A program made the position numbers and the translations under genes. Under the pieces are notes generated by a model. It searched no databases and was not told the DNA's origin. It saw only the letters and a list, made by a program, of their open reading frames with translations. Below, in pieces: positions 13,565 through 30,654 of a DNA stretch of 64,000 nt (the first letter of the stretch is position 1; each line of letters begins with the position of its first letter). The stretch is from the NCBI GenBank assembly GCA_949317995.1, contig OX439035.1, positions 83,887,959 through 83,951,958 on the forward strand, in the 5' to 3' direction. Origin of the DNA: Acholoe squamosa. Taxonomy: Eukaryota; Annelida; Polychaeta; Phyllodocida; Polynoidae.

Positions 13565-14289
13565 TGTTTTGTCATCAATAGCCAATAATTATAATGAACG
13601 GGTATAACAGGGTACGCTTATGTGGGTATTTATTGTATACTGTATTATGTGTGTATTTATTGTATGCTATATGGGAGAGTGCTATGGGAGTCCTGTATAG
13701 GGTTTATGGTAGCTAAGAGTTTATGGTAGGCTGTGGAATGTTGCAGACGGAGGGGAGTCGACGAGATCTGGTCAGGTAGAATCTGTAGAGGGGGAGGGGG
13801 GAATACGGGTGAGCCAAACACCGGCGTCTGAAAGGTGTGAGGGGTTGGTAAGAGATAGGGAGGAGTTAGTATTGTGGGAGCAGCCGAGGAGGCAACACAT
13901 ACTCCTGGAGTAGACGAGGATGAAGCTGTTTAGTATTTAGTATTACACTTAGCCAATGTAAGAACGGATTGAACAGGATCTCTATGGCACTTACACCTCT
14001 CCAGTAGCATCGGATTGTTAAAACATGAACTGCTTGTATGAATAGACTGATGTCGGTGAAGCTGTGCAACCTGAGTGGGATCACCAAACAACTGTAACTG
14101 TGAATAACCAATGAACAATAAATGGTGACTTGTATCGGCGTCTTGGTGTTGGTTAAAAGAATGGGCTAGGCCAACATCATACCACTAGAGTTAGTCTTCC
14201 CAAATACGTGAGAACAGCGGAGCGAGCTGATAATAACTACACAAGTTAGACCACATTAATATACATATAAACACAACCCACACAGCCCA
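13565..14289 (+). repeat. E1 5' LTR
   Basis: The repeat starts TGTTTTGTCATC and ends CACAGCCCA. It matches 29930-30654 with a constant offset of 16365, so there are no indels. An AATAAA polyadenylation signal lies at 14117-14122. I saw no canonical TATAAA; TATT/TGTATA-rich sequence occurs near 13625-13670. Confidence 0.95.
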
Positions 14290-14291
14290 GA

Positions 14292-14309
14292 TGGTGGAGA
14301 ATTAGTGGT
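14292..14309 (+). promoter_or_regulatory. E1 primer-binding site
   Basis: TGGTGGAGAATTAGTGGT starts two bases after the LTR. TGG at this position complements the CCA end of a tRNA primer. The matching tRNA was not identified. Confidence 0.6.
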
Positions 14310-14328
14310 TGGGCTTATCATTGTACTG

Positions 14329-17220
14329 ATGAGCGGCTCGCCGTACCCGATACCTAACAGCTCAGACGCTGGATGTGACTCAGCGGCATCGCCACACACT
14401 GACAGTAGTGACGGTGTGGAAGTCTATACTATCATACCTGCAGCGCGCACATTGCCTGGGAATGCGGCAGTAGCACATAGTGGTGTAGCAGAGGGACAGG
14501 GTGGAAGATCCGGAGTGAGTGAAGCGGGACCTGATCAATCACGTGTCACTCTTAGATCGGATCACACACATGTGCATGTGCAATTAGGACCCAGGTCGCA
14601 AGTGGTGCTTTTGCCTGGAGAGGAGGTGTCTAGAGAGATTGGATTCCCCGTGGCTCAGTCAGAGGAGGAGCGGGCGTCGTCTCAAAGGGATCCCAAATCT
14701 GGGGGGACGTCTGGCCTACAGTTGTCTACGACGGCTGATTCTGAACCAGCAGGGTCGGTGGTAGTGGACGATACCTCTGGACCATTCTCAGCATTGGGAG
14801 TGGAGAACGAGCATCAGTCATCTGCGGCAGAGTCGGAGACCAGGGCTGATATTTCTAGTGATGGGCAACAGGCGGCGGTTCAGGAGCACACAGTAAGTGC
14901 CGATGCAGGGGAACGGCCTGATAATCTCTGCAAGGGATGGACGACAGGAGACAGATTAGTGAATTATAAGTATTTTTCGACGCCCATTGCTAGGAGCTCC
15001 AGTATTAATTTCTGTAAGGCTACTCCTAGGTGCCTTGAGTTTGAGGGTACAGCGGACCAGGGACAAGTCAGACGCGCATCTGAGGGGGATGTGGCGGATA
15101 TTGGTGATGAAGATTTGAATTTTGAAGTAATAGCGACGTCATTGGGGTTAATTGAGCCAGTAAATGAGGACAGACAGGTGGATGAGAGTGGAACAAAGGA
15201 TAGTCGTGGGGATGAGGGGGACGCACATGGGGGGAGCAATCCAATAGACGGGGCATCTACGGTGGTGGCAGCGTCAGGACAAAACGAGGACGTCGGTGAG
15301 GAGATACAGGAACAGGGGTCGGAGGCCTGTGGTGATTCACAAGGGCAGAGCGCAAGACTGCTGCCATCTGGTTTCTTGGTGGTTGTTGAGAATGGGAGAG
15401 AGTTGAGTGACAAGGACTTGGTGGGCCAGGATGAGAGTGGTGGAGTTGGACAGGATCGGACAAGCTGTACTACACCGGTCATTACAGGTGATCAAAGTGG
15501 CAGTCGTTTGGGAGAGTCTGTGAGTAGGGCACGAGTGGATGAAGTTATTGCAGGTCTGCAGAACACTAATATTAGGGTGCGACACAGCATAGAGAAGGGG
15601 AGGGCCATATTGGAACGGGAGCTGAGATATCGGCGGGCCATTGATGGGGAGGAGCTGCTCGCGGGGCCGGAGATAGACCGGGAGCGTGTAGCACGAAGGG
15701 AGAGGTTTTTGAGCGACACAGTAAATTGGAGAAAGGTAACTGCGAATATCCGCTCAGGCAATAGTACAGGTCGTACTACAGGTGAGGGGCATTTAGATGA
15801 TGTTCTAAATAGCCATCTTCAGACTGATGTTTCGGGTGACTGGGAGGATTGGTGGGTTCGGAGAGCGGATGAAGAGAGAAAACGACAAATAGAAAGGGAG
15901 GCCCAGGAGGAAGCCGCCGAGGGCTCCGTCTCTGGAGGTGTTAAAACTGATATACAGGGGAACGAGAGTGAAGAGAGCTCAGTGGGTGATTTGGATGCGG
16001 AGAGACAGGTAGAAGAGGATATTGCACCTATTATTGGTTTTGAAGACGACGACATGGCGCCTAGTCCGAATGTTAAACTACCATCCTTCAATGGGGAGTC
16101 TGGGGAGGATTATCGGAGATATTTTAAGGAATTGAATGGAATGCAAAAGCTATTTGGATGGTCTCCGGATCAACATCTTGAATATGCAAAATTGGGCTTG
16201 AAGAAGGGGGCATCGAAATGGATGGATGGTATTCCAGAAGGGGAAAAGGATACTTTGGACAAAGTAGTGGCTATAGTGAAGAGGGTTTTTGAAGACAAAA
16301 GGCCACTGTGGCAGAAACATAGGGATTTGCACTGTCTGAAGCAGGAAAAGGGACAGTCGGTTTGGGACTTCGCATTGAAAATAAAGGAATATGACGAGTT
16401 GGACGTTCCTGATGTCATCAAACTGTCAGTCTTTGTGGGGGGTTTGCTTCCGCCCATTGATAAGGACCTGATGAAACACAATGCTGATTCTTTTGAAGAG
16501 GCTCTCAGGCTGGCGTCTTATTGGGAAAATGTGGAGAAAGGCAGGAACTCCAAAGGTGTGGCGCAGTTACACATGCTAGAGTCTGAGGGGACTCGGGATG
16601 GAGCATGTGGGGATGATCAGTTTGATCCTAAAGAATATGCTAGGGAACAAACTAAAGCGGTGGTGGAGATGTGCACTATGGAATATAGACGGGGGCTCAG
16701 AGAGATGGAACATGGACGGGAGAATCAGCAGGGACAGTATGCTGGAAGGGGTGGCACTTCACAGGGGCAGTATCAGGCGCAGACGGGCAGAGGGACCGGC
16801 GCGGGAACATATGGTCAGAATAGACAGTTTGGTGCAGGCGGTGGAGGTCGAGGATGGAATTATCAAGGGGGACGCGGTGGAAATCAATATAACGCGTCTC
16901 AGTATTTCAATAACAGGTTTCAAGGACAGAGATACACAGGAGGAAGCAGGCAGGGTCAACAGGGGGATGATAAAGGTCAGAGAAGAGCACAGGAATATGC
17001 TAGGATGATGGGAGATGCAGGAGAGAGTCAGAAAGGAGGAGGGGCGATCTATTGCTTGATTCATGACTCTACCACACATTCTACAGAGGAGTGCACGTTT
17101 TTGAAGAAATACAGGGATCAGTTGTCATCCTCTCAGCAGAACAGAGACCAACGAGATCAGGGAAATGATGTTCGCAGGCCGGGAAATGGGCACAACGGCT
17201 CATTCCTACCCCAGAATTAA
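14329..17220 (+). CDS. gag: E1 Gag
   Basis: This is the structural polyprotein of the virus-like particle. The ATG at 14329 is the first in frame after the leader. The first 580 or so residues are acidic and low in complexity, unusually long for a gypsy Gag (963 residues in all, against a more common 300-600). A Retrotrans_gag-type capsid follows at about residues 580-735, from a KLPSFNGESGEDY motif through the conserved tryptophans and a QxxGQSVWDF-like block. Next is a Gly/Gln/Arg-rich RGG segment (about 803-884), a plausible nucleic-acid binder. Near residue 909 a C-x2-H...H-x4-C cluster replaces the usual zinc knuckle. The 3' end overlaps the pol frame by about 52 bases and holds a -1 frameshift site. 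Confidence 0.9.
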   Translation: MSGSPYPIPNSSDAGCDSAASPHTDSSDGVEVYTIIPAARTLPGNAAVAHSGVAEGQGGRSGVSEAGPDQSRVTLRSDHTHVHVQLGPRSQVVLLPGEEVSREIGFPVAQSEEERASSQRDPKSGGTSGLQLSTTADSEPAGSVVVDDTSGPFSALGVENEHQSSAAESETRADISSDGQQAAVQEHTVSADAGERPDNLCKGWTTGDRLVNYKYFSTPIARSSSINFCKATPRCLEFEGTADQGQVRRASEGDVADIGDEDLNFEVIATSLGLIEPVNEDRQVDESGTKDSRGDEGDAHGGSNPIDGASTVVAASGQNEDVGEEIQEQGSEACGDSQGQSARLLPSGFLVVVENGRELSDKDLVGQDESGGVGQDRTSCTTPVITGDQSGSRLGESVSRARVDEVIAGLQNTNIRVRHSIEKGRAILERELRYRRAIDGEELLAGPEIDRERVARRERFLSDTVNWRKVTANIRSGNSTGRTTGEGHLDDVLNSHLQTDVSGDWEDWWVRRADEERKRQIEREAQEEAAEGSVSGGVKTDIQGNESEESSVGDLDAERQVEEDIAPIIGFEDDDMAPSPNVKLPSFNGESGEDYRRYFKELNGMQKLFGWSPDQHLEYAKLGLKKGASKWMDGIPEGEKDTLDKVVAIVKRVFEDKRPLWQKHRDLHCLKQEKGQSVWDFALKIKEYDELDVPDVIKLSVFVGGLLPPIDKDLMKHNADSFEEALRLASYWENVEKGRNSKGVAQLHMLESEGTRDGACGDDQFDPKEYAREQTKAVVEMCTMEYRRGLREMEHGRENQQGQYAGRGGTSQGQYQAQTGRGTGAGTYGQNRQFGAGGGGRGWNYQGGRGGNQYNASQYFNNRFQGQRYTGGSRQGQQGDDKGQRRAQEYARMMGDAGESQKGGGAIYCLIHDSTTHSTEECTFLKKYRDQLSSSQQNRDQRDQGNDVRRPGNGHNGSFLPQN

Positions 17221-20200
17221 ATTTGATATCAGGGGATGGGTCGGAAAATAGGGGATCGAAAGACAAAGCGCCATGGTTGGTTCAGTGTACTATTGACGAG
17301 AATGCATACAGATGTTTAGTGGACACAGGCGCGTCTGATTGTTTTATAGCGCGGACAGTTGTGAGTAGTATAAGTGAGAGAGCAATTTGGGACAGGCAGC
17401 CATCTCAATTGGGGAAGGTGCGTCTGGGGGACAAAACATCATTACAAGTTTATGAGACGGTGCGACTGCAGTGTTTTATGGATGGTGCTTGCATATACTA
17501 TGATTTTAATGTGGTGGATTCACTAGCTTATGATATTGTGCTGGGACGTAATTTTCTGATCGACGCAAGGGCACAGATTATAGCTATAGATGGAAAGGTA
17601 CGTCTCTTTACTGAGGATCCGGTCTCAATTGAAGTAGCGGCGATTTTGGACCCATGGGAAGAAAGATTGGTGACGGTGAAGGGATGGGATGTTGCGGCTG
17701 ACAGGGTTGGAACATCGGTCTTGCTGAGACCGTCTAATTTGGCGGTGGTAGCTGCGGATGGTGCGGTGAACTATGTGGGGAAGAAATGGTATATGAGAAT
17801 TGCTAATCTCTCTGACAGGCAAGTGTACGTGGATACAACTGAGGTTATAGCATATGCAGAAGACATAGATGAACCAGAACTTAATTTGCTGGAGGTAATT
17901 GATACAGCTAATGTTGGCAGGGATAGAAAGGATGAGGCTCGTGAGATTTTGGCAAGATGTACTGAAGAACGGCGGGAGAATGGTCAAGATGCTAGAGGGG
18001 GATCAATACACCGGCAGGATCATCAGGACAATGGTGGTGGATGTGGCGTTTCTACATTGAGTGAGCAGGAGAGGCTGGATAAAATTAAGAAGATCAGGGG
18101 CCTTGATTTGGGTGACACTATGATGACGCTGGAAGAGCAGAGGGTATTCAGAGAGATGCTGGTGGTCAACATGGACACTATAGCATTTTCTATGAAGGAG
18201 TTGGGTCATTGTTCATTGGCTCCAATGAAAATAAGGGTCGATGAGTCCAAGGGTCCGTGTATGGCGCGACCATACAGGTATTCTCCTCAGAAAATGGATA
18301 TTATTGATGAACAGGTGAGGGAATTATTGAGGTTGGGAATTATTGAGCCCAGTGACAGCGTATGGAGAAGTCCGTTGGTGGTAGTGCAGAAGAAGGATGG
18401 CAAGGCTAGATTATGTACAGACTATCGCATGTTGAATCTTATTACGGCGGATGATACATACCCTATGCCCACAGCCAGAAGCATGTTTTTGTATATGGCA
18501 TACAGAAAACCTATAATCTTTACAGCCATGGATTTGCTCAGTGGGTATCATCAGTGCGATTTACATCAGGACAGCAGGCAGTATTCAGCGTTTGAATCAC
18601 CCTCGGGAGTTTGGCAATGGACAAGGATGCCGTTTGGTATGAAGCAGAGCCCATGGCAATTTACTAAGATTATGTCATTAGCACTAGGAGGCTTAATACC
18701 ACGTACTTGTCTAGCCTACCTAGACGATATCATTATCTTTGATCCGGATGTGGACAGCCATATCACTAATGTCGGCAGAGTATTGGCAGCTTTAGGTAAA
18801 GCAGGTTTAACAGTGAAGCCGGAAAAGTGTGAGTGGGGCAAAGCGGAAATCAAGTTTTTGGGGCACATTATTAATGCTGAAGGAGTGCAGACGCAATCTA
18901 AAGTGATCAGAAAGGTGCAGGAATTTGGCAGACCGTATAATGAACATACAACTAGATCCTTTCTGGGGCTTTGTAATTATTACAGGAGTTTTATTCCTAA
19001 CTATGCTGTTTTGTCGATGCCTCTGAATAATTTGTTGAAAATCAAGGTGCCATTTAAGTGGACGAATGAGTGTGAGGTGTCATTCAAGAAAATACAAGCG
19101 GCATTAGCAAGCACACCGTTATTGGTACATCCAGAGATCGGGGGTCACTTTTATGTTTTAACGGATGCTTCGGATGGCGCGTGTGGAGCGGCCATCTGTG
19201 TAAAGAGGGACGGATTGCTGAGACCGGTAACATATTATGGGTATACATTTACAAAGGCTGAAAGAAACTACACTATAACAGAGAAAGAAGGCCTAGCTGT
19301 TATAAGAGTATTGAAGAAATTTGAGGATATGCTGACGGGAGCTAAGATTACGATAATTACAGACCATCAACCATTAATACCTTTGCTTCAGCAAGCCAGT
19401 AAGGCTCCATCCAAAAGGTTGACTAGATGGGGTTTAGCAATGACTGACTTTGACTATGAGATCAGGTATGAGCCGGGAGCCACTCACTACCTGCCGGATT
19501 TTATATCCAGAGTGCCGTTGGCAGTAGGACAGGATACACCTGGCGAGGAGTCGGGGGAGTTTGAGCCTGAGGTGGGATGTGAGTTACTCGTGATGGAACT
19601 GGTAGGGGAGGAATTGGATAGGGAAACCTTCATACAGGAACAGTGGAGGGATGGATTCTGCAGAGGGATGATGAGATATTTGGCGGGAGATGAATTGCCA
19701 GTGGATGAGGAAAAGGCGCGAGGGATTTTACATAATGCTGATTTCATGGGTATGAAGGATGGATTGTTATGCAAGTATATAAAACCAGCTAGAAAGAGGG
19801 GTGGGCCTATAGCTGACTTAAACCCAAGGATAGTGGTGCCTAAGGCTATGGTGAATAGAGTGCTCTATCTCATGCATGATGATATCATGTGCGGAGGACA
19901 TGTGGGAACAGTGGCGCTGAATACAAAAGTACAGGCTCGGTTTTATTGGAAAAATATGATGGTGGACATAGCTAAGTACGTGCGGCTATGTGAAAGGTGC
20001 GCGTTGAGGAAAAGAGCACCTCACTTTAGAGCCAAGGCAAGATCATGGGATACGCCGGATTATCCATGGCAAGTGATACAGACAGATTTTGTTGGGCCAC
20101 TGCGTAGGTCCAAAGAAGGTTATAAATATATCATGACCTTCATAGACCTTCTGACGGGATGGCCAGAGGCATTCTGTACTAAAGACACAACCGCGCACAC

Positions 20201-21599
20201 GGCAGCTGGGGTGTTTCTACGGGAGATCGTGTGTAGGTACGGCAAGGTGGAAGTGCTGTGCAGCGACAGAGGGTCTACATATATGGGTCAGGTTTTTCGT
20301 GAGGTTACAGCTAGGTTGTCAACCAAACAGAGGTTTACGTCTTCTAGGAATCCGACCGGAAATGCCAGGGTTGAAAGATTGCATAAATCATTAGAGGATA
20401 CGATAGGATGCTATGTGACTGAGGACCATGAACACTGGCCAGAGCTGTTACCCATTGCATTGTGGACGGTGCGCTCCAATATTAGTATGAGGACGGGGTT
20501 TTCACCATATGCACTACAATTCGGGAGGGATCCGGTGGCTATGTCCTTTGCTGAAGAAAGGCCACTGCCTAAAGTGCCATCTGAAAGGGATTGGTTTATA
20601 AGGACCAATCATAGCATACAGTTATTACAAGAGGCGGCCAACGCTCATACTGCTAGGTATGAGGAGCAGCTCAGACGTAGATTGGATGGACGGGCTCGAC
20701 CTGTATCTTTTATAGAGGGGGAGTGGGTATATTACTATGATCCGAAATGCGCGGTGAATAACACATCGAAGTTTGCTGGTAGATACACGGGGCCACATAG
20801 GATAATAGAGGTGGTGGGGGATAACAGGGTGAGGTTGAGAGCAGTGAAGACGGGCAAAGAGATACCTCACTTGGTAAATGTGAATAAGCTGAAGAGAGCA
20901 TACAAAGGGGAGGGTGAAAATGACGAAGGAGTAGCCAAAGATGAGAGGACTGTGGAAGTGGATGGAACAGAAGTGGAATCAGAAGTGGAAATACAGGATA
21001 TAAGACGTGAGGACCCTAAAGGGGTGACTGAGGTAGAACATCCTTCATCTGGTCTGGAGGATACAGCGCTAGCGGGCGCTGATAAGGAGGACAAATTGAA
21101 AACGTCAGACGACGATAGAAGTGCACATGAGAAAAAGAGAGAGGTGGCCGGAGCTGGACCGCGCGCACCTATACAGGAATCTGATAATGAGAAAGATGGA
21201 GTTGTACGGCGAGATAGCCGGGAGAAGCACAGGCAGGAAGCTGTGGTCGATAATTGGTGTAAAAAGAAAGGGTTACAGGATAGTGATATTGATAAGGTCG
21301 AGGGTGGCCGAAGACAGGATAATGAAGAGAAAAGGAAGGGTAGAGTGAGAAATGTCGAGGTGAAGAGGCAGATGGACGAAGAAAGAGAGAGAGAAGAAAT
21401 GGAGAGAAGACAGAAAAGAAAAGAGAGAGAGGATAGGGCTGAGAGAAGACGGAGGCAAAGAGATAGGAGAGCGCAATTGGCTGCAGGGGCTATTATGAGT
21501 GAGGAATCTAGCAGTGAACATATCATTCCAAAGGGACCGATTTGTAAGCATCACAGGAGAGGCAGAGAGGAGCTCAGCTCATCCAGCGATGGAGAATAG
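17169..21599 (+). CDS. pol: E1 Pol: protease, RT, RNase H, integrase
   Basis: The frame opens at 17169 inside gag; no ATG precedes the protease, so expression by -1 frameshift is likely. The aspartic protease has LVDTGAS near 17316. The RT has a RLCTDYRMLN block and YLDD near 18717-18728. RNase H starts at LTDASDG near 19157 and keeps TDHQPL near 19360. The integrase has an H-x(n)-H-x(n)-C-x2-C finger (19877 to about 20003), then D (20083), D (about 20264) and E (about 20374) in the expected spacing. A YTGPHRI segment near 20776 resembles the GPY/F module. The last 230 or so residues form a Lys/Glu/Arg-rich tail not usual for gypsy integrases. No stop or frameshift is seen across 1476 codons, so the enzyme set looks complete. 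Confidence 0.93.
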   Translation, partial: CSQAGKWAQRLIPTPELNLISGDGSENRGSKDKAPWLVQCTIDENAYRCLVDTGASDCFIARTVVSSISERAIWDRQPSQLGKVRLGDKTSLQVYETVRLQCFMDGACIYYDFNVVDSLAYDIVLGRNFLIDARAQIIAIDGKVRLFTEDPVSIEVAAILDPWEERLVTVKGWDVAADRVGTSVLLRPSNLAVVAADGAVNYVGKKWYMRIANLSDRQVYVDTTEVIAYAEDIDEPELNLLEVIDTANVGRDRKDEAREILARCTEERRENGQDARGGSIHRQDHQDNGGGCGVSTLSEQERLDKIKKIRGLDLGDTMMTLEEQRVFREMLVVNMDTIAFSMKELGHCSLAPMKIRVDESKGPCMARPYRYSPQKMDIIDEQVRELLRLGIIEPSDSVWRSPLVVVQKKDGKARLCTDYRMLNLITADDTYPMPTARSMFLYMAYRKPIIFTAMDLLSGYHQCDLHQDSRQYSAFESPSGVWQWTRMPFGMKQSPWQFTKIMSLALGGLIPRTCLAYLDDIIIFDPDVDSHITNVGRVLAALGKAGLTVKPEKCEWGKAEIKFLGHIINAEGVQTQSKVIRKVQEFGRPYNEHTTRSFLGLCNYYRSFIPNYAVLSMPLNNLLKIKVPFKWTNECEVSFKKIQAALASTPLLVHPEIGGHFYVLTDASDGACGAAICVKRDGLLRPVTYYGYTFTKAERNYTITEKEGLAVIRVLKKFEDMLTGAKITIITDHQPLIPLLQQASKAPSKRLTRWGLAMTDFDYEIRYEPGATHYLPDFISRVPLAVGQDTPGEESGEFEPEVGCELLVMELVGEELDRETFIQEQWRDGFCRGMMRYLAGDELPVDEEKARGILHNADFMGMKDGLLCKYIKPARKRGGPIADLNPRIVVPKAMVNRVLYLMHDDIMCGGHVGTVALNTKVQARFYWKNMMVDIAKYVRLCERCALRKRAPHFRAKARSWDTPDYPWQVIQTDFVGPLRRSKEGYKYIMTFIDLLTGWPEAFCTKDTTAHTAAGVFLREIVCRYGKVEVLCSDRGSTYMGQVFREVTARLSTKQRFTSSRNPTGNARVERLHKSLEDTIGCYVTEDHEHWPELLPIALWTVRSNISMRTGFSPYALQFGRDPVAMSFAEERPLPKVPSERDWFIRTNHSIQLLQEAANAHTARYEEQLRRRLDGRARPVSFIEGEWVYYYDPKCAVNNTSKFAGRYTGPHRIIEVVGDNRVRLRAVKTGKEIPHLVNVNKLKRAYKGEGENDEGVAKDERTVEVDGTEVESEVEIQDIRREDPKGVTEVEHPSSGLEDTALAGADKEDKLKTSDDDRSAHEKKREVAGAGPRAPIQESDNEKDGVVRRDSREKHRQEAVVDNWCKKKGLQDSDIDKVEGGRRQDNEEKRKGRVRNVEVKRQMDEEREREEMERRQKRKEREDRAERRRRQRDRRAQLAAGAIMSEESSSEHIIPKGPICKHHRRGREELSSSSDGE
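17181..17187 (+). promoter_or_regulatory. -1 ribosomal frameshift heptamer GGGAAAT
   Basis: In the gag frame the bases read G GGA AAT, which fits X XXY YYZ. A -1 slip gives GGG AAA T, exactly the pol frame. It sits inside the window where both frames are open (17169-17217), 30 bases before the gag stop. This is the layout used for Gag-Pol fusion in many retroviruses. I did not find a clear downstream pseudoknot by eye. Confidence 0.75.
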
Positions 21600-21924: not shown

Positions 21925-22512
21925 ATGGCAGATAGCTGGTACGATAGCGTTGGAGAACAGCAATACCAACAATACTATAATACGTGGATGATTCAAGACA
22001 ACTATTGCAATAGCACTTACAATGAAAGGAGCACAGTGTCTGCAGCAAGTTCAACAACAACAGAAACAAATGAAAAAGGATTTGGTGCGACTTCAACGTC
22101 AGGCCAACCAAGCTCAACGCAAGAGCCAATACAGGTGGTGGAAGCAGCTCAAGCCGAGGTCCTGGTAAATCATCAGGGAAACATATGGGATAGCATACGT
22201 GATATCACCGTGGGACAGACAGAATGGGAGTGGCTGTTGGATGCCACTCTACAAGGCACCGGTGGTATAATTAAGAGAGAGACTCAGACCACAGAAACAG
22301 CGACACAGACAGAACCATCAATATTTTATAGTAAAGACGATGAATTTGTGCTGGATACATCAATCAGATTGGATGACATATTGATAGAAGAGTATTATAG
22401 CAGAAGACAAGTGACATCAAGGCTCTGTCACATTTGTGGCAGAACAACAGCAACAGCGGCAGGAGCGGCCAAACACCTGGAACAGGTACATGGGATAAAA
22501 CATCTCATATAA
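21925..22512 (+). CDS. E1 ORF3, small protein with C2H2-like finger
   Basis: I do not recognise the family. The 195-residue protein is rich in Thr, Gln, Ser and Tyr at the start and acidic in the middle. It ends with C-x2-C-x13-H-x4-H (CHICG ... KHLEQVH, about residues 168-190), which fits a single C2H2 zinc finger. It starts about 325 bases after pol, and its TAA overlaps the next ATG as TAATG. It could be a nucleic-acid-binding regulator of the element, which is inference. Expression would need splicing or reinitiation because it is far from the 5' end. Confidence 0.7.
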   Translation: MADSWYDSVGEQQYQQYYNTWMIQDNYCNSTYNERSTVSAASSTTTETNEKGFGATSTSGQPSSTQEPIQVVEAAQAEVLVNHQGNIWDSIRDITVGQTEWEWLLDATLQGTGGIIKRETQTTETATQTEPSIFYSKDDEFVLDTSIRLDDILIEEYYSRRQVTSRLCHICGRTTATAAGAAKHLEQVHGIKHLI

Positions 22513-22997
22513 TGTCCACTAGTGAGGATGCGGGAAAGAGAGCACCATCTATAGTAAAGGCAGGGAGATATAGGGGACAACAGGTAGAAGATGCGCTGGA
22601 TGCTATATATGGATTTGGATATTCATTGCCAAAGGTATTCAGATACAATGGGGCGACGTTACAGGATATAGTAATGCAGAAAATATCAAAACTGAAATTG
22701 GACATCGCGAGATTGCCAAGATATTTGAGGGAACAAGTAAACAGACATCACTTTAAGTATGGAGTAGGGAGTGTGACTAATGCATTCTTTTTCTCAAGAA
22801 AGTGTAGGAGACATCGCAAGACTAGTAGAGGGAAACGATGCAGGCAGTGTAGACAAAGAGATGAAACTTGGGAAATGTTTAAACTGAAGCAAAAGGGAAA
22901 GCATATCACCCAGGGAGTGTTAACATCCGGGGTTAGAGACAATGAGACGACCCTGGAGGAGGAGGATGCAACTGAAAATTTTGATAAATATAATTAG
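22512..22997 (+). CDS. E1 ORF4, basic Arg/Cys-rich small protein
   Basis: The 161-residue protein starts at the ATG of the TAATG overlap with ORF3, an arrangement linked to termination-reinitiation in other retroelements. The family is not recognised. The first 90 residues look globular. Residues 96-117 are packed with Arg, Lys and four Cys (RKCRRHRKTSRGKRCRQCRQ), suited to RNA binding or nuclear import, and the C-terminus is acidic. A role like the arginine-rich regulators of complex retroviruses is only an analogy. Confidence 0.65.
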   Translation: MSTSEDAGKRAPSIVKAGRYRGQQVEDALDAIYGFGYSLPKVFRYNGATLQDIVMQKISKLKLDIARLPRYLREQVNRHHFKYGVGSVTNAFFFSRKCRRHRKTSRGKRCRQCRQRDETWEMFKLKQKGKHITQGVLTSGVRDNETTLEEEDATENFDKYN

Positions 22998-23087: not shown

Positions 23088-23429
23088 ATGTACAAAATGG
23101 CAGGTATCAGTATAACGCCACCTACATTTAGAGGAGCACCAGGAGAAAAGATAGAAGAATATTTCTACGACATGGATCTGATTAAGAGAATATATGATCT
23201 AGGGGAAATGGAATATGTGGCATTATTATTGTGGGGAATGAAAGGTGAAGTGAAAACTTGGGTTAGGAAATTACCTGAGGAAAGTAAGAATACTGCATGG
23301 AAGATACAGCAAATAACCATGGCAGTATTTGCAGCTCCAGATGCATGGAAAGAATGGGGTACAGGAGGAAAGAGACAGAAAAGACAGCGCGAGAATGACG
23401 GCGCGGAAACAGAGCCAGCGGGGGAATGA
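23088..23429 (+). CDS. E1 ORF5, mini-capsid (Gag capsid-like) protein
   Basis: The 113-residue product opens with a PPTFRGAPGEKIEEYF segment that matches the capsid start of E1's own Gag (PSFNGESGEDYRRYF, about residue 583). It keeps the same spacing of an L..G.KG...W....PE..K.T..K pattern over about 75 residues, then ends with a short basic tail. It therefore looks like the N-terminal half of a Retrotrans_gag capsid with no C-terminal half, RGG segment or zinc cluster. It is diverged from the Gag copy, so this is not a fresh duplication. It could co-assemble with or interfere with Gag, as truncated capsids do in other systems (inference). Confidence 0.7.
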   Translation: MYKMAGISITPPTFRGAPGEKIEEYFYDMDLIKRIYDLGEMEYVALLLWGMKGEVKTWVRKLPEESKNTAWKIQQITMAVFAAPDAWKEWGTGGKRQKRQRENDGAETEPAGE

Positions 23430-23992: not shown

Positions 23993-24063
23993 CTGAAGTG
24001 AAGATTTAAGGACTAGTAGGAGTAGAGGCATCATCATCATCAGCAGATGAAGCGGGAGAAGAA
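23993..24063 (-). CDS. E1 antisense gene, short second exon
   Basis: On the minus strand a pyrimidine-rich acceptor (TTTATTTACTATCTTCAG) ends at 24064 and a donor GTATGTAT starts at 23992, framing 71 bases. Joined to the donor at 24653 (intron 590 bases, GT-AG), the second frame of the long exon continues for 19 codons of the same Ser/Pro/Thr/Asp-rich character and stops at TAA 24006-24008. The matching frame, matching composition and clean splice sites are the support. No transcript data are available. Confidence 0.55.
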
Positions 24064-24069
24064 CTGAAG

Positions 24070-24650
24070 ATAGTAAATAAAGCAGGTATATGAGACAAAG
24101 AGAAAGAAGTGCATCACATACAGGAGGCAACCACTATGGGGCACCTTATAAGTTGTCTAAGGGTGAATGGAAACACTAGTCGGAACCAGCAGGACCACAG
24201 TTGCGACACACATAGAATGACTCCAGTAACAAGGTCCATAATTAAGAGGCCTAAATTTAAAGGATATATCTGTCCAGAAGTAAGGCATTCTGTTAAAGAA
24301 CCAGAGCCTATAATGGTTTAATTATTTAAGAAGCCCAGACTCTGAGAAAGGAAAAACGATGTCTATAGCTGTAGATATATAAAAAAAAAAAAAATAAGTG
24401 TGAGTGAAATTCTTTTCTAAGAAGGTATTAGGACACATAAAATTCAGCTATATGGGTGTATTAATGAGATCAGTTATACACCTGAGACTGTGAATGTGAT
24501 CGCCACTACTCACAAATCAGAGGAGCTCAGCGACTTTATAGAGTTAGCTTATGCATATATTTTAAAAGAAAATATGTGTATAGTATCTTATTACAAGAAC
24601 GAAGTGAGCGTCTCTAGGAATCAAAGTATGAATCACTAGGGAAATATACT
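24070..24650. other. predicted intron of the antisense gene
   Basis: This AT-rich stretch includes an A-rich run near 24381-24393 and has no convincing frame on either strand. It lies between the two antisense exons, bounded on the minus strand by GTAAGTAT and TATCTTCAG. Confidence 0.45.
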
Positions 24651-24653
24651 TAC

Positions 24654-25899
24654 TTCTGCGAGAGGGTAGAAGCTGGGGAAGCCAATGTTGGAAGGATAGG
24701 ACCTCCAAGATTAGAAGAACGGGAGGTTTGTGGTCTGGCAGGAAGCTGATAGGGATGATGTCGCGTAGTGGTAGCAGATGAAGATGTCAAGAGAGATATG
24801 ATGGTAGAAGAACTGTGAGTCAGTCGTGAGGAAGAGGCCATGGTGCTGGACTGACAGGTCAACGGTGAGAAGGGTGGATGTCCAGGTGAGATAGCCAGAG
24901 TACTCCAGAACGAGGGCGACATTACTGGAAGGTGTGGAAGTGAAGCTGCAGTGGATGAAGATGAAGTAAACTGACCGGAAGTAGAAGAGGTCAGGGCCAG
25001 AGCGGGCGTATGTAGGCAGGAAGGCGGAGACCTAGAAGCCGAGGTGGCGCGGGCCTCTGCAGCTGGAGCAGCTCGGATGGTGATGTGAGGCATCCTTAAT
25101 GAAGATACAGCAGGAAACTGACCGGAAGTAGTGGCGCTGGTAGTAGAAAAGGGACGAGAAGCAGCGGCAGAAATGTGGATGTTAGGGTTGTTCTGGACGT
25201 CAGAGGTGCAGTGGTGGCTAGCAAAGGTGTGTATGGTAAGGGCGAAACACCGGAAGTAGCAGGAAGGTGAGAAAACACATTGTAGTCTACATATGAAGAG
25301 TGATGCTGAGGTGGCAGTGGACGAGAAGTTGATGAAACAGCGAAGTTGGCAGGCAGAGAATATTGGTGGGAGGTGTCCACTCGTAAAGGAAGAGTCGCTG
25401 TGCAAGTTGGTAGCGCATTGGAGGTAAAGGTGGATGCTAGGCTTGGAGCAGAGGTAGCAGGCACTATGGCGCTATAGGTGGGACGCGCACCCAGGGGAGA
25501 CATCTGTGTAGGATTCCAGGGTGGCACGAAAGAGGTGGTCAAGTTGACAGACGGAGGCGTGATATTGACATAAGCAGGCCGATAAGCAGGTGCAGGAACA
25601 GGAGGAACAGCAGCAGTTGATTGCAGGCGGTAATTGGGATCGGGCATCCCATCCAGGTGAATGACGCGCAGTGTCATGTCCGTCATGTGACAAGCTAAGC
25701 GTAGATGATCTCGAATGGTGGTGTGTGAGGGCATGGTCGCGCCTTGCGGTCCGGTGCATACTAGCATGCACGGAGTGACGTTAGCATCTGTGGAGGACAG
25801 GTCTCTGCAGCCGACGATGTAGGTAAAGCCGGGCTGGAGACGATCTATCGGGAGATAGACGAGTGCGCCATTGACAGAAACGCTGAAATAGCTAGCCAT
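24654..25899 (-). CDS. E1 antisense gene, long exon
   Basis: This is an open reading region on the strand opposite to gag-pol-env. From the ATG at 25899 a first frame runs to 25096 (267 codons): about 100 residues that look folded, then Pro/Ser/Thr-rich sequence. A second overlapping frame (open 25405-24650) carries the same Ser/Thr/Pro/Ala-rich style onward from about 25200 and seems the true continuation, so a one-base-type shift or tiny intron near 25190-25215 must be assumed. The second frame runs into the donor GTAAGTAT at 24653, and its apparent TAA stop lies inside that donor. No family is recognised. The plus strand here has no comparable frame. A possible acceptor (TTCTCAG) ends at 25934, 34 bases upstream of the ATG. 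Confidence 0.6.
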
Positions 25900-25934: not shown

Positions 25935-26307
25935 TGAGAATTTAATTCTAGGTATCTAACCAAGGGGATGGGAAGTTGAAATAAGAAAACAAAAATATAG
26001 TGAAAACTATAGTAAAAAAAAAATTGAGGGCACATTAGGAGGAGTCGCTGAGACAAAGACTCCAATCCAATAAATTGGTGTTATCAGATGGAAGAGACGT
26101 ACAGCTAGATAGGAAAGGAAGGCACACGTGTTCAGATTGACGGGAAAATATATACAAGAAGGGGTAAAAGGGTCATGAACTGGTGAACTATCTGACACGA
26201 TAGGGCTTATTAAGTGTTCAAGATCCATAAAAAACTTCCAGGAGCGATCAGTTAGGAGTCGTAGTAACCCAACTCGAACTGTAACCGGAAGCCATAATAA
26301 GAAGAAA
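25935..26307. other. E1 spacer upstream of env
   Basis: No sense frame is present. On the minus strand TATA-like and T-rich sequence near 25985-26025 could be promoter or upstream intron of the antisense gene. The plus strand would need a splice acceptor here for an env message; none is obvious. Confidence 0.3.
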
Positions 26308-29064
26308 ATGGCGTGGCTAACTATACTATGTGTCTTATGTTCCTTGTGGGGTGTGGTAGATGCTGGAAGGCACACTTTCGAGACTTTAGAGAGAGCCGAA
26401 TTAGGTGTCATTTTGCAACCTGGTAGACGTATTTCTACAGCTGAGCACAATCATGTGTCACAAGTGTTTGTATTAGAGATACCAGATAGATTACCAGAGC
26501 CGGAAATGGAAAGTATTTATGAACAATGTGTGAAAAATATGCAGGTTATGTGTGATATTCAACATCACAACAGAACCTTATTATTTGAAGATACCTGTGA
26601 CAACATCAAACAGAAAGAAGAATGGTTGAATCAAATTATTAGAAAACTAATACAGGCCAGAGAGGAGGAAGTAGAAAAGCTGATGGAAAACATACCTGAA
26701 CAACAACAAGTCAAAAGGTCTAAGAGAGCAGGTATACCAGGTCTAAATATTATAGGAGAGTTGTCGTACTATATTTTTGGCACTGGGAGAGCTGATGATG
26801 TAGCCAGAAATGAAAAAGATATTCAATTACTGAAGACATCATATTATAAGATGCGTGATGTTATTAAAACATTGGCCACAAGTACTAGCAATGGCTTGGA
26901 GGACGTCATGGCGGAAGTGGGAGAGTTGGCTGATAGACAGTTACAATTGTATGAAATGGCTAAGATATCATTGAAGAGACGGAAGTTGCTGGAAAGAACT
27001 CAAACTATGCACAGTGTGGCATTATATGAACTATCCATTGTATACAACCATGAAAGCCTGCTGACAAGGGTCAAATGGGGGTATATTATACATTTATTAA
27101 ATGAACTCATTGAGATAAAAGATATGGCAGCTGAGGTAAGATTGGCATCACGAAGAAAACTATCATCAAAATTGGTCACTAGAGAAGATTTGAAGGAAGC
27201 TATAGTCAACACTGAAGTATATTTAAAGGCTACGTACCCACGATTTAGGGTCGCTTTTACTGATCCTGAATATTACTATGATAATAGTGTGGTGCGAGTA
27301 TATCAGCACCAAGGTCGTGTGAAGATGCAGATAAGGATTCCGGTGGTGTCAGAGGAACACATATTTTGTGTATACTCTGTAAAGGTGTTTCCGGTGCCAG
27401 TGCGGCTGGCCAATAAAGAAGCTGACGGGACGAGAATAGAGGGATTGCCATCAGAAGTAGCCATATCAAAGAATGGGCGGTATTATATATCAGAGCCAGT
27501 GGTGAATTGGGCGCGTTGCCATGGCAACTCAATAGCAGTATGCCCAGATATTCCACACATGAGAAAAATAGCCGAACGAGGGTGCATGGTGGCACTAATA
27601 AGAAATGACAAGGTGGCCATAGCAGAAACATGTGAGATCAACTATATAGTGCAACCAAATTTTCCTTCATTTGCGATAGCACTGGGAAAGGGTCGTACTT
27701 TGGTATCGGGACCCGACATACAAGGTCAATTGATGTGTCAATCAAGCCCCCCTGTTAAGGTGAACATGCATCATTACGCCATATTGAACATTGGGTGTGA
27801 TTGCGCATTCATGACTGCCGGGGCGTGGATGCCTTACAGCTTGGCAGGATGTGGTCATGTGAACATGGAAACTAATGTGACTTTTGTAAATAACGATTTG
27901 CTACAAATGAACAGTGTTAAGAAATTGACATGGATAAAGGCCGTATTAAATGGTGAAACTGTAGAGGTATTGCAAGATGAAGTGTTGCCAAAATTAGTAA
28001 AGACCAAAATGAAACACAAGGCTAGGATACAACAGTCGCCAGCAGCTGTCAATCTTAAGAATTTGGTGAGTGCAATGGAAGACGGATCAGCATTACCCGA
28101 TTTGGATGGCATGAGTGGTGGAGGCCATTTTCCTACTGAATCACTATGGGATTATTCACCAATAATGATTGCAGGGGTGATTGTTATGACTCTGATGGTG
28201 GTGCAATATTTTTGTTTAAAAAGACTATTAATGGCATATATATTAGCAAGAATGCCTATGAGAATAAGGAGTCTAGAAACCTGGGACTATGAAAAATACG
28301 GTGAAGATGTCGGAGGTAATTATGAGGAAGAGGATCCGGAACACAAAACAACAATAGCTATGTTATCATTGATATTGATAGTAATGATAATAATAATAGT
28401 GTTACTGGTGAGGAAGGTGCGACAACTAAAGAGGCTTCAACCAGTGGATGGACTGTATCTAGAGGTGGCAACTAAAGAGATTACAGAAATAATACCACTG
28501 GGGGAGAGTCTAATGCCTTTGGACCAGGTATTTCAAAGACCAGCAGAACAGGCTCTTATTAGAGACGTAGCAATAAGCTACTCGTGCCCGAAGTACATAG
28601 CTACGGTGCAGTGGGGTCGAGTGTTATATTCCACTGAGATGGCAACGGCGGAAAACGCAGTGCCATTGCCATTACCAGCCACTGTGAAGGTGTCAAAGAA
28701 ATTAGCAGGGATACTGAACGGTGACTATGGATTTACGGTGATGACAAGATTGATTAGGTATAGTGGGGGTCTGGCGACAGGTGTACCACTAGAGATACCT
28801 ATGATATCAGCGGCGGGCTGGACACCAATAAGGAACAGAGAGATAAATACACATCAGTTATCTGACACGGGACATGCCAGAGCCATGGCTCAGTTAAGAA
28901 GATCAAGACAGTTACCAGAAGTGCCTGGAGAATCATATGGGGCTACGGCTGTCTCATATTCAGTAAACAAGGGTCATAAAGAGTCGGTGAACGTGGCTCT
29001 GCGAGGTCAAGAGCCCAGGACGGGATCGTCATCGGTGTACGTGGACCTGAATGAAAGAGACTGA
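26308..29064 (+). CDS. env: E1 envelope-like glycoprotein, F-protein type
   Basis: This is a predicted membrane-fusion glycoprotein in the position of env. The ATG at 26308 starts a hydrophobic signal peptide (about 1-20). A furin-type site R-S-K-R ends at residue 140, and it is followed at once by a Gly-rich, hydrophobic segment with an IFGT motif (141-158). This is the layout of baculovirus F and errantivirus envelopes, in which a short F2 is cut from a large F1. A helical heptad-rich stretch follows (about 165-270), then Cys-containing ectodomain. Two hydrophobic spans occur, near 615-640 and 683-705, instead of the usual single anchor. A C-terminal tail of over 200 residues ends in tyrosine motifs. 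N-glycosylation sequons occur near residues 88 and 520. It is 918 codons without a break, longer than most F-like envelopes. Confidence 0.85.
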   Translation: MAWLTILCVLCSLWGVVDAGRHTFETLERAELGVILQPGRRISTAEHNHVSQVFVLEIPDRLPEPEMESIYEQCVKNMQVMCDIQHHNRTLLFEDTCDNIKQKEEWLNQIIRKLIQAREEEVEKLMENIPEQQQVKRSKRAGIPGLNIIGELSYYIFGTGRADDVARNEKDIQLLKTSYYKMRDVIKTLATSTSNGLEDVMAEVGELADRQLQLYEMAKISLKRRKLLERTQTMHSVALYELSIVYNHESLLTRVKWGYIIHLLNELIEIKDMAAEVRLASRRKLSSKLVTREDLKEAIVNTEVYLKATYPRFRVAFTDPEYYYDNSVVRVYQHQGRVKMQIRIPVVSEEHIFCVYSVKVFPVPVRLANKEADGTRIEGLPSEVAISKNGRYYISEPVVNWARCHGNSIAVCPDIPHMRKIAERGCMVALIRNDKVAIAETCEINYIVQPNFPSFAIALGKGRTLVSGPDIQGQLMCQSSPPVKVNMHHYAILNIGCDCAFMTAGAWMPYSLAGCGHVNMETNVTFVNNDLLQMNSVKKLTWIKAVLNGETVEVLQDEVLPKLVKTKMKHKARIQQSPAAVNLKNLVSAMEDGSALPDLDGMSGGGHFPTESLWDYSPIMIAGVIVMTLMVVQYFCLKRLLMAYILARMPMRIRSLETWDYEKYGEDVGGNYEEEDPEHKTTIAMLSLILIVMIIIIVLLVRKVRQLKRLQPVDGLYLEVATKEITEIIPLGESLMPLDQVFQRPAEQALIRDVAISYSCPKYIATVQWGRVLYSTEMATAENAVPLPLPATVKVSKKLAGILNGDYGFTVMTRLIRYSGGLATGVPLEIPMISAAGWTPIRNREINTHQLSDTGHARAMAQLRRSRQLPEVPGESYGATAVSYSVNKGHKESVNVALRGQEPRTGSSSVYVDLNERD

Positions 29065-29929
29065 AGGTGATGAATAAAACGCCATCATGAGAGAGACTTG
29101 GCATAGACGGTGTCAGGACAAGAAAAGGGGGGGGGAGAAAGATATCGTGCAGCTGGCGTGAGACGAAAGGATGGAATAGACAATACAAAGACGATCTACA
29201 GATGAATTGATATAATGTCTGGGAATGGTGCCAGTGTATATTATTAAGTAAGATAATATAACTAAAAGAAACTGTAATTTAAATGTACGACCAACTAATG
29301 AGACACTAACTACGACGTAATGTGGCAAGTGGAAAGATTTCTGATGTATATACTCGTTGACAAGCTGTGCACGCGTGAGTTAAGTAAGAGGTTGCCAGGT
29401 GTAACCCAAGACGCGTTAGAGTGTGTTTTATAGTGATGCTTGGGGCAAAGGGTAGATAGAGGGGAACGTTTCGGAACAAGGAGTTGACAGATGTAAGGAG
29501 ATTTATTAGCCCGATTGGGTGTAACTGGTGTCGACTCCCGGGTAAGGATAGTAAAAAGAATATATAAACATAGAATGGGACAAAGTGCTTAGTAAAGGCG
29601 AGTGAATGAGTAAAATAAATAACAAAGGAAAGGAAAACAAATTGAGAATCAAGGAATGAGAGAATTGTAATAATAAAGTATATGTTAGGGGACAAGTTTG
29701 CGCTAAGAATAAGTCACCAATGCAGTGTGGAAAATATATATAGTAATAATGCATGGTATTATATAAGTGTGGTGTATATGTATGTGCATAAATAACTATT
29801 GAAATGTATAATATGATAACGATGATTACTTCAGGTATTAGTGACAAAACAATACATAAGATGTATTCAGGCATAATTTATGCTTGACAATTGGTGTGAC
29901 TCGCGTCACAAGAGGGGAGCGCCCGCACC
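29065..29929 (+). other. E1 3' untranslated region
   Basis: This stretch of about 865 bases has no gene. A polypurine tract with nine or ten G lies near 29115-29139. A weaker one (ACAAGAGGGGAGCG) lies at about 29909-29922, followed by eight bases before the 3' LTR; either could prime plus-strand synthesis. Minus-strand frames here are Ser/Leu/Tyr-rich and look accidental. Confidence 0.45.
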
Positions 29930-30654
29930 TGTTTTGTCATCAATAGCCAATAATTATAATGAACGGGTATAACAGGGTACGCTTATGTGGGTATTTATTG
30001 TATACTGTATTATGTGTGTATTTATTGTATGCTATATGGGAGAGTGCTATGGGAGTCCTGTATAGGGTTTATGGTAGCTAAGAGTTTATGGTAGGCTGTG
30101 GAATGTTGCAGACGGAGGGGAGTCGACGAGATCTGGTCAGGTAGAATCTGTAGAGGGGGAGGGGGGAATACGGGTGAGCCAAACACCGGCGTCTGAAAGG
30201 TGTGAGGGGTTGGTAAGAGATAGGGAGGAGTTAGTATTGTGGGAGCAGCCGAGGAGGCAACACATACTCCTGGAGTAGACGAGGATGAAGCTGTTTAGTA
30301 TTTAGTATTACACTTAGCCAATGTAAGAACGGATTGAACAGGATCTCTATGGCACTTACACCTCTCCAGTAGCATCGGATTGTTAAAACATGAACTGCTT
30401 GTATGAATAGACTGATGTCGGTGAAGCTGTGCAACCTGAGTGGGATCACCAAACAACTGTAACTGTGAATAACCAATGAACAATAAATGGTGACTTGTAT
30501 CGGCGTCTTGGTGTTGGTTAAAAGAATGGGCTAGGCCAACATCATACCACTAGAGTTAGTCTTCCCAAATACGTGAGAACAGCGGAGCGAGCTGATAATA
30601 ACTACACAAGTTAGACCACATTAATATACATATAAACACAACCCACACAGCCCA
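29930..30654 (+). repeat. E1 3' LTR
   Basis: It appears identical to 13565-14289 along the full 725 bases, with TG and CA ends and CTAG on its outer side. The AATAAA corresponding to that in the 5' LTR lies at 30482-30487. Confidence 0.95.

What the first reader, a model, noticed from the sequence alone, without database searches (positions are those of the whole stretch)
13565..30654. A 17 kb gypsy-type endogenous retrovirus with complex-retrovirus gene content
Seen: identical-looking 725 bp LTRs, CTAG duplication, long open gag, pol and env frames, and about 4.7 kb between pol and env holding three small sense ORFs plus an antisense coding region. Known: gypsy/errantivirus elements normally have only gag, pol and env in 5-9 kb. 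Inference: this may be an undescribed lineage of large invertebrate metaviruses with regulatory or accessory genes, and its intact state suggests recent activity.
Basis: partly seen in the sequence, partly recalled or inferred. Interest (0 to 1): 0.88.

Follow-up and report, generated by a model that had tools for sequence, protein, structure and literature searches.

The report
Retrovirus-like element with antisense gene
This is one of many nearly intact copies of a 17-kilobase retrovirus-like element in a large, probably animal, genome that carries, besides the usual three genes, three small extra genes and one gene written backwards, all apparently kept by selection, which is a gene layout best known from complex retroviruses.

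Summary
A 17,090-bp provirus (13565-30654) has 725-bp LTRs without mismatch, a CTAG duplication, gag, pol in the -1 frame, env and a 4.7-kb pol-env interval. Thirteen other full-length copies were compared there (2.4-3.3% diverged): ORF-A is open in 13 of 14, ORF-B and ORF-C in 14 of 14, pN/pS 0.11-0.16. ORF-C derives from Gag capsid. The antisense region is a real gene: one ~418-aa frame open in 12 of 14 copies, dN/dS about 0.25 between its two forms. The window copy is frameshifted there by a 7-bp deletion, so it is not wholly intact. One copy each of three other env-bearing lineages in the same genome has an antisense ORF in the same place; one is similar in sequence (BLASTP E 3e-5; missed by phmmer) and evolves at dN/dS 0.11-0.16 in 13 of 15 comparisons. 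So sense accessory genes and an antisense gene belong to this Ty3/Gypsy group. Antisense genes are known in HTLV-type retroviruses and plant Retand elements; my searches listed none for an env-bearing animal Metaviridae. Its function (HBZ-like regulator) is inferred. Host phylum was not determined.

The parts
13561..13564 (.). target site duplication, left copy (CTAG)
   Evidence: three other copies also have 4-bp duplications
13565..14289 (+). 5' LTR, 725 bp, TG...CA ends, AATAAA at 14117
14292..14308 (+). possible primer binding site (TGG start, 2 nt after the LTR); tRNA not identified
   Evidence: sequence; inference
14305..17220 (+). gag (first ATG 14329), 971-codon frame; residues 593-662 share a capsid-like stretch with ORF-C; no zinc knuckle model matched
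   Evidence: no stop in 42 of 47 scored copies
17181..17187 (+). candidate -1 frameshift site GGGAAAT in the gag phase, inside the gag/pol overlap 17169-17220
   Evidence: function inferred
17169..21599 (+). pol: protease (weak), RT, RNase H, integrase (zinc binding and core), then a long charged tail
   Evidence: no stop in 28 of 32 scored copies
21925..22512 (+). ORF-A, 195 aa, acidic, C2H2-like end (below Pfam cut-off)
   Evidence: open in 13 of 14 copies, pN/pS 0.16 outside the overlap
22512..22997 (+). ORF-B, 161 aa from an ATG that overlaps the ORF-A stop (TAATG); Arg-rich, Cys-bearing block
   Evidence: TAATG in 14 of 14; no stop in 150 of 150 scored copies; pN/pS 0.12; relative in lineage P, phmmer E 5.5e-10
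23088..23429 (+). ORF-C, 113 aa, similar to the capsid part of the element's own Gag
   Evidence: BLASTP to Gag residues 593-662, E 7e-8; open in 14 of 14; pN/pS 0.11
24650..25899 (-). antisense gene (about 418 aa in other copies): N-terminal ~90-aa domain, then Ser/Thr/Pro-rich tail; broken here by a 7-bp deletion where the two remaining frames overlap (25096-25405)
26308..29064 (+). env, 918 aa: hydrophobic start, R-S-K-R site at residue 137, two membrane-like segments (about 613-643, 678-708), conserved ~210-aa C-terminal part
   Evidence: no stop in 48 of 50 scored copies; pN/pS 0.017 over 10 copies
29930..30654 (+). 3' LTR, 725 bp
30655..30658 (.). target site duplication, right copy (CTAG)

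Best explanation
This is a recently inserted copy of a large, env-bearing Ty3/Gypsy provirus family built like a complex retrovirus. Shown: LTRs, gag, pol in the -1 frame, env, three sense accessory genes and one antisense gene, kept in the same order in the copies read and held by purifying selection; an antisense ORF in the same place in one copy each of three divergent lineages. Inferred: genomic RNA from the 5' LTR gives Gag and, by a -1 frameshift, Gag-Pol; spliced RNAs give ORF-A, ORF-B (coupled through TAATG) and Env; ORF-A (acidic, finger-like) and ORF-B (Arg-rich) act as nuclear regulators of expression or RNA export; ORF-C, a stray capsid piece, tunes particle assembly or blocks related particles; an antisense RNA started upstream of the antisense ATG makes a protein that damps or times sense expression, as HBZ does in HTLV (recalled). 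Env supports spread by new infection of germ cells.
For: Full-length pairs of constant spacing: 14 pairs among 40 scored LTR matches, 16,318-16,375 bp. ORFs kept in 14 copies. Selection: pN/pS 0.16, 0.12, 0.11 for A, B, C and 0.27 for the antisense frame, against 0.53-0.87 in the 23501-24601 spacer; antisense dN/dS 0.25 (Fisher 3e-18) against 0.83 and 1.70 in the other antisense frames for L011 v L009; lineage R antisense dN/dS 0.11-0.16 in 13 of 15 pairs, 0.24 and 0.36 in the two closest. Env pN/pS 0.017 over 10 copies. Antisense ORF upstream of env in 3 of 3 divergent lineages read, one copy each; similar N-terminal domain in one (BLASTP E 3e-5). Scored copies without a stop: antisense 95 of 97, ORF-B 150 of 150, env 48 of 50, pol 28 of 32, gag 42 of 47. 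LTR pairs 0/725, 0/725, 0/725, 2/726.
Against: No transcript or protein data were available, so splicing, frameshifting, antisense transcription and every accessory function are inferred; the 0.8 below is for gene content and selection, while the HBZ-like role alone I put near 0.45. Only best-scoring copies were scored, which favours intact ones, and a frameshifted copy drops out of such a list rather than showing a stop (the window's own antisense gene is not among the 97). In a set picked by env instead, the antisense frame was cut short in 2 of 10. The likeness of the window and lineage R antisense domains is modest: BLASTP E 3e-5 alone, 5.4e-4 in a 227-ORF set, and phmmer at E <= 0.05 did not report the pair. 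Q and P match only by place, orientation and pattern (R v Q BLASTP E 1.4); the P copy has a stop near its start; the Q frame (383 codons) was exceeded by the longest of 500 Markov sequences (426). Five near-full-length R-type antisense sequences at 46-49% identity all carry stops. One sense frame also shows a low ratio through shared third positions (0.35, 0.17-0.39), though sense frames there carry 22-33 stops. No fold or family was found for the antisense domain.
Confidence: 0.8

Rival explanations
1. The antisense frame is a by-product of base skew: the sense strand is purine-rich, so the opposite strand has few stops and stays open without coding.
For: Strong G and A excess on the sense strand across the element; other antisense frames over pol and the interval are also fairly long; the lineage Q frame is within reach of a Markov control.
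Against: One frame is open while the two other antisense frames carry stops; changes by codon position 38/23/95 with 0 of 156 making a stop (about 2.5% expected, P 0.019); dN/dS 0.11-0.36 in that frame over 21 pairs against 0.65-4.2 in the two other antisense frames; Markov controls fell short for the window family, R and P.
Confidence: 0.04
2. The pol-env genes are a one-off passenger: a host gene or another transposon trapped between pol and env.
For: LTR elements can trap foreign ORFs between pol and env (PMC6431247, passages); the antisense N-terminal domain had no relative at E <= 0.001 among 44 candidates in the protein collection.
Against: Present in all 14 full-length copies read; an antisense ORF lies in the same place in one copy each of three lineages whose env is 31-36% identical over the part compared; ORF-B has a relative in lineage P and the antisense domain a likely one in lineage R; ORF-C resembles the element's own Gag.
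Confidence: 0.05
3. The antisense gene is real but not a transcription regulator: its product acts in the particle, at the membrane or against host silencing such as piRNA or RNAi, or the antisense RNA itself also matters by pairing with sense RNA.
For: Nothing in the sequence fixes the function: a beta-rich N-terminal domain (model pLDDT 65) and a Ser/Thr/Pro-rich tail, 36-46% S+T+P. Antisense RNAs of plant elements may act as RNA (PMC7264820, passages).
Against: Selection on codons shows that a protein matters, not only the RNA. A basic run like a nuclear signal is seen in the lineage Q protein, which fits a nuclear protein but is weak evidence.
Confidence: 0.4

Closest known systems
Deltaretroviruses (HTLV-1 HBZ, HTLV-2 APH-2)
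   Same: env-bearing LTR provirus with accessory genes and an antisense gene (HBZ and APH-2 as described in PMC11963269, passages)
   Different: HBZ is a bZIP protein read from the 3' end of the provirus (recalled); here the antisense gene lies between pol and env, no Pfam domain matched, and the RT is nearest Ty3
Plant Retand/Grande/RIRE2 Ty3/Gypsy elements with antisense ORFs between pol and 3' LTR
   Same: Ty3/Gypsy, long pol-3' LTR region (2,933-6,566 bp), antisense protein genes in most clusters (PMC11963269, PMC7264820, passages)
   Different: sense ORFs of that Retand region show no Env features in that paper; TRP28 domain (PF04195) there, none matched here
Errantiviruses / env-bearing gypsy elements of metazoans
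   Same: gag, pol, env order and furin-type site; env-bearing gypsy is widespread in metazoans (PMC13172572 and PMC12859917, passages)
   Different: 17 kb, accessory and antisense genes, second membrane span and ~210-aa C-terminal part in Env (the absence of these from errantiviruses is recalled); no Pfam env model matched
Burro giant gypsy elements of planarians
   Same: giant env-related Ty3/Gypsy elements with extra coding capacity (PMC6431247, passages)
   Different: extra domains there sit in one huge polyprotein with env between gag and pol; the words antisense and opposite strand do not occur in that paper's main text
Mussel Steamer-like MchSLE-1 with antisense RNA
   Same: animal LTR retrotransposon with a 67-aa antisense ORF and an antisense transcript (PMC10974842, passages)
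   Different: one sense ORF (gag and pro-pol), tiny antisense ORF; no selection evidence in the 12 passages seen

Membership tests
Metaviridae (Ty3/Gypsy) | pol order protease-RT-RNase H-integrase with gypsy-type RNase H | tested here: met
   RVT_1, RT_RNaseH, RT_RNaseH_2, Integrase_H2C2, rve in order; protease hits weak, below cut-off
Metaviridae (Ty3/Gypsy) | RT closer to Ty3 than to other reverse-transcribing viruses | tested here: met
   Ty3 229 bits, then 206 (8r0s), 127 (7kse), 102 (8wus), 34 (HIV-2 RT); that 8r0s, 7kse and 8wus are caulimovirus, foamy and MLV types is recalled; solved structures only, no tree
Metaviridae (Ty3/Gypsy) | TG...CA LTR ends and 4-6 bp target duplication | tested here: met
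   4 of 4 copies compared, 4 bp
Metaviridae (Ty3/Gypsy) | tRNA primer binding site next to the 5' LTR | tested here: inconclusive
   TGG-starting stretch 2 nt after the LTR; tRNA not identified
Errantivirus | Env homologous to the baculovirus F family | tested here: not met
   no Pfam env or fusion model above cut-off for P0003 or the other 6 members of A1; a resemblance of the stretch after the furin motif is recalled only; AlphaFold model too poor to use (pLDDT 43)
Errantivirus | Env with furin-type cleavage site and membrane anchor | tested here: met
   R-x-K/R-R at residues 135-142 in 6 of 6 proteins with an N-terminus; two membrane-like spans in 7 of 7
Troyka | CG...CG ends and 3-bp target duplication (PMC12440569, part 1 of 5 read) | tested here: not met
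Retroviridae | RT nearer to retroviruses; newly acquired RNase H after a tether domain (PMC12440569) | tested here: not met
   RT nearest Ty3, gypsy-type RNase H models only
Complex retrovirus (as a way of working) | conserved regulatory/accessory genes besides gag, pol, env | tested here: met
   for conservation; regulatory action not shown
Plant Retand antisense ORF type | TRP28 domain (PF04195) in the antisense protein | tested here: not met
   no Pfam match at E <= 1 for P0010, P0011, P0012
HBZ-like antisense regulator | antisense transcript and protein that alter LTR-driven expression | not testable with these tools

The most novel reading that the evidence does not exclude
A clade of animal Ty3/Gypsy proviruses independently became complex retroviruses: an old, codon-selected antisense gene placed between pol and env, a Gag-capsid-derived accessory gene, zinc-finger and Arg-rich accessory genes, and an Env with an extra conserved domain, still spreading by infection. 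Antisense genes would then have arisen at least three times in LTR elements (HTLV type, plant Retand, this clade), pointing to a general need for an opposed-strand regulator.
Probability: 0.66. Interest if true: 0.87.

Novelty: new variant of a known kind. Interest (0 to 1): 0.78.

Why it matters
Complex gene content with antisense genes is usually told as a story of vertebrate retroviruses (recalled). A large, recently active Ty3/Gypsy family with a matching set of genes would give a second system in which to ask what antisense and capsid-derived accessory proteins do for a provirus. The very strong constraint on env (pN/pS 0.017) next to mosaic recombination in the antisense gene makes it testable whether these elements copy by reinfection rather than by moving within a cell line. 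Annotation that looks only for gag, pol and env would miss the four extra genes.

Tried and rejected
IMG/VR scan with the env alignment: 24 pattern matches, none confirmed. Protein search with the antisense N-terminal domain: 44 candidates, none at E <= 0.001. PDB sequence search with its profile: none at E <= 5; Foldseek with its model (pLDDT 65): 43 matches, none at E <= 0.001. Env structure prediction was too poor to search. Weak Pfam and NCBIfam hits of Gag, Env, ORF-A, ORF-B and the lineage P relative of ORF-B to unrelated families were below cut-off and dropped. The idea that the antisense domain and the sense ORF shared by lineages R and P are paralogues was tested and dropped (hhalign probability 0.1). 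The small sense frame 23485-23658 was rejected as a gene. Discarded numbers: the env figures (five loci on the other strand; replaced) and the between-copy LTR line (one locus on the other strand). The DNA search of the interval in the whole genome did not complete. No RT tree was built. Rfam (gathering threshold) and tRNA scans of the window: nothing. On re-checking, the phmmer miss of the window/R antisense pair was added and the novel-case odds lowered from 0.70 to 0.66 for it.

That the host is an animal is inferred from the env-bearing gypsy type and a rhodopsin-type receptor fragment in the window.
Full report
WHAT IS THERE. The window lies at G000:C1:83887959-83951958 of a 1.48-Gb assembly in 63 contigs. 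The element runs 13565-30654 (17,090 bp). Its 725-bp LTRs show no mismatch, begin TG and end CA, and are flanked by CTAG. Three other full-length copies checked have 4-bp duplications (CTAT, CTAT, CTAG as read on the genome's + strand) and LTR pairs with 2, 0 and 0 differences. gag is an open frame of 971 codons. pol is open from 17169 to 21599 in the -1 frame, overlapping gag by 52 nt, with a slippery-type heptamer GGGAAAT in the right phase at 17181 (frameshifting itself is inferred). Pol has protease (weak), RT, RNase H, integrase zinc-binding and core domains in gypsy order. Its RT scores 229 bits with Ty3, then 206 (8r0s), 127 (7kse), 102 (8wus) and 34 (HIV-2); that 8r0s, 7kse and 8wus are caulimovirus, foamy and MLV types is recalled.

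THE FAMILY. The LTR search scored 40 of 941 candidates; 28 of the 40 form 14 pairs (the window's included) 16,318-16,375 bp apart, so full-length copies keep one size; 3 more lie 1,129 bp apart in a row and 9 are unpaired in the list. Scored copies without a stop: gag 42 of 47 (3,263 candidates), pol 28 of 32 (37,960), env 48 of 50 (4,287), ORF-B 150 of 150 (342), antisense 95 of 97 (1,034). These are the best-scoring copies only, so the shares are biased upward; a frameshifted copy scores lower and drops out rather than showing a stop; and candidate counts include other families.

SENSE ACCESSORY GENES. I fetched the 5-kb interval stretch of 13 other copies. They differ from the window by 2.4-3.3%, and between the same two end points they measure 4,866-4,888 bp. 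ORF-A is open in 13 of 14 copies (L018 has a stop at codon 10), ORF-B and ORF-C in 14 of 14; a control frame (23485-23658) is shifted in 7 of 14. Pooled pN/pS is 0.16 for A and 0.12 for B (both outside their overlap) and 0.11 for C; in the 23501-24601 spacer the three frames give 0.53-0.87, and in the short 25950-26290 spacer 0.42, 0.72 and 2.96. Other frames of A gave 0.36 and 3.1, of B 1.47 and 0.82, of C 2.08 and 0.57. A has only 15 variable changes, one of them the stop, and is the weakest case. The ORF-A stop and the ORF-B start overlap as TAATG in 14 of 14 copies, a form that couples two reading frames in some viruses (recalled). ORF-A is acidic (27 D+E, 13 K+R) and ends in a C2H2-like motif below the Pfam cut-off. 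ORF-B has 35 K+R in the 187-codon frame and an Arg-rich block. ORF-C matches the family's own Gag, residues 593-662, at E 7e-8, so I read it as a capsid-derived gene.

THE ANTISENSE GENE. In 12 of 14 copies one antisense frame of about 418 codons from ATG is open (417 in L011); the window copy has a 7-bp deletion that splits it and L013 has a frameshift. In the copies counted the two other antisense frames carry stops, and sense frames carry 22-33. None of 1,000 order-1 and 1,000 order-2 Markov sequences reached 432 codons (longest 344). Among 14 copies, single-step changes are 99 synonymous and 57 nonsynonymous, 38/23/95 by codon position, none a stop (about 2.5% expected, P 0.019). The middle of the gene comes in two forms up to about 25% apart over 250 bp; L011 has the second form through the middle, while L021 and the window are mosaics, which looks like retroviral recombination. 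Between the two forms (L011 v L009) dN/dS is 0.25 (Fisher 3e-18), against 0.83 and 1.70 in the other antisense frames; all six pairs tested gave 0.18-0.35 in frame. The mirror sense frame also gives a low ratio (0.35) because third positions coincide, but it is full of stops. In the 10 env loci read, picked by env score, the antisense ATG lies 405-409 bp upstream of the env ATG on the other strand; in 8 of 10 the frame stays open to the end of the stretch held (363-365 codons), and in 2 (the window's own and L024) it stops early.

OTHER LINEAGES. A diverged env relative (P0009) brought up other families of the same genome as well as the window's: 72 matches scored of 4,114 candidates. I read the interval upstream of env in one copy each of three of them, which I call R (L044), Q (L045) and P (L046). 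Env is 31-36% identical to the window's over the part held, and pol 60% (R) and 52% (Q) where covered; no pol was matched in the P stretch beyond chance. All three have an antisense ORF, of 342, 339 and 388 codons, just upstream of env. R's resembles the window's over the first ~90 residues: BLASTP E 3e-5 for the pair, tblastn 9.6e-5, 5.4e-4 in an all-ORF set of 227; phmmer at E <= 0.05 on that set did not report it. Q's and P's are alike only in place, orientation and pattern, and the P copy has a stop near its start. For order-2 Markov controls over the interval (500 each) the longest frames were 274 (R), 426 (Q), 250 (P) and 311 (window family) against observed 345, 383, 394 and 432, so Q alone is not beyond chance on this test. 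The R antisense protein has 57 matches of 75 candidates; of 13 full-length ones at 80-100% identity 11 have no stop; a further five rows of near full length at 46-49% all carry one to five stops. Over six R copies dN/dS is 0.11-0.16 in 13 of 15 pairs, 0.24 and 0.36 in the two closest pairs, with Fisher p down to 3e-37. Q's antisense protein has 63 matches of 93 candidates; 13 of 15 near-full-length ones have no stop. By coordinates, env and antisense genes are on opposite strands in 10 of 10 R pairs (one further R-type env had no antisense match listed), 4 of 4 Q pairs and 14 of 14 window-family pairs that I matched by eye. Sense accessory genes recur too (phmmer): ORF-B in P (5.5e-10), C2H2 ORFs shared by R and P (2.2e-7), and another sense ORF shared by R and P (1.3e-3; blastp only 0.046). 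C2H2 hits stay below Pfam cut-offs. No significant relative of ORF-A or ORF-C was found in R, Q or P.

ENV. Six database proteins match Env, five of them 40-43% identical over 84-100% of it and one a shorter piece (only the 8,000 candidates sharing most words were scored); all come from ENA with no names. One lies on a 14,646-bp contig, as does a pol that is 78% identical over the RT part; that they share one contig is inferred from the equal length. An R-x-K/R-R site at residues 135-142 is present in 6 of 6 proteins with an N-terminus and two membrane-like spans in 7 of 7; the ~210 residues after the second span align well. No Pfam fusion-protein model matched above its cut-off, so I do not file Env under the baculovirus F family although the layout and a recalled motif resemble it. 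Env pN/pS is 0.017 over 10 copies.

HOW IT PROBABLY WORKS. Shown: gene set, order, selection, recent insertion, many copies, mosaic forms. Inferred: LTR-driven sense RNA, frameshift for Pol, splicing for accessory genes and Env, nuclear regulation by ORF-A and ORF-B, assembly tuning by ORF-C, an antisense-coded regulator of sense expression, and spread by infection, for which the constraint on Env is the best support.

WHAT IS KNOWN. Antisense ORFs between pol and the 3' LTR are typical of plant Retand elements (97% of clusters with a TRP28 domain; PMC11963269, passages) and reviewed for plants (PMC7264820, passages); HTLV-type retroviruses have HBZ and APH-2 (PMC11963269, passages). A mussel element has a 67-aa antisense ORF with a transcript (PMC10974842, passages). 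Rotifer elements carry varied sense third ORFs (PMC5408684, passages). Passages of PMC8220671 and PMC8905726 added nothing on such a layout. [quoted passage not shown] the primary paper is not held). Among the titles and abstract starts listed by the searches I saw no conserved antisense gene in an env-bearing animal Metaviridae; that is a statement about those listings only.

VERDICT. An ordinary-looking provirus outside and a complex-retrovirus-like gene set inside. New variant of a known kind.

Noticed in passing
window 38831-51126: A second GC-rich Ty3/Gypsy element: 98% identical 300-bp stretches 11,996 bp apart (likely LTRs), gag-like ORF with zinc knuckle 39294-40742, pol 40957-43254, and an internal ~3.25-kb duplication (44246-47199 and 47505-50426).
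   Followed up: partly
window 35950-36249 and 54239-54538: 99% identical direct repeats 18,289 bp apart that enclose the GC-rich element; gypsy fragments on the minus strand (31803-35949) lie just outside. Possibly nested insertions.
   Followed up: no
window 33011-33424: Two arrays of a 21-bp unit (6.6 and 8.5 copies) in opposite orientation, beside and inside the minus-strand gypsy ORFs.
   Followed up: no
window 7235-11011: Long LINE ORF with endonuclease, RT and RNase H.
   Followed up: no
window 3633-4307: Minus-strand ORF matching the rhodopsin-type receptor family 7tm_1 (E 7.5e-12).
   Followed up: no
window 56917-57435: 259-bp tandem duplication, 99% identical.
   Followed up: no
G000:C17:44603654-44606635: Three copies of this family's LTR in a row, 1,129 bp apart, with about 400 bp between them.
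   Followed up: no
G000:C5:66426208-66449181: Two neighbouring copies exactly 16,356 bp apart in ORF-B, antisense gene and env, suggesting two proviruses sharing an LTR.
   Followed up: no
L044 (lineage R) and L046 (lineage P): A further sense ORF with a Cys-rich end is shared by lineages R and P (phmmer E 1.3e-3) but not seen in the window family.
   Followed up: partly
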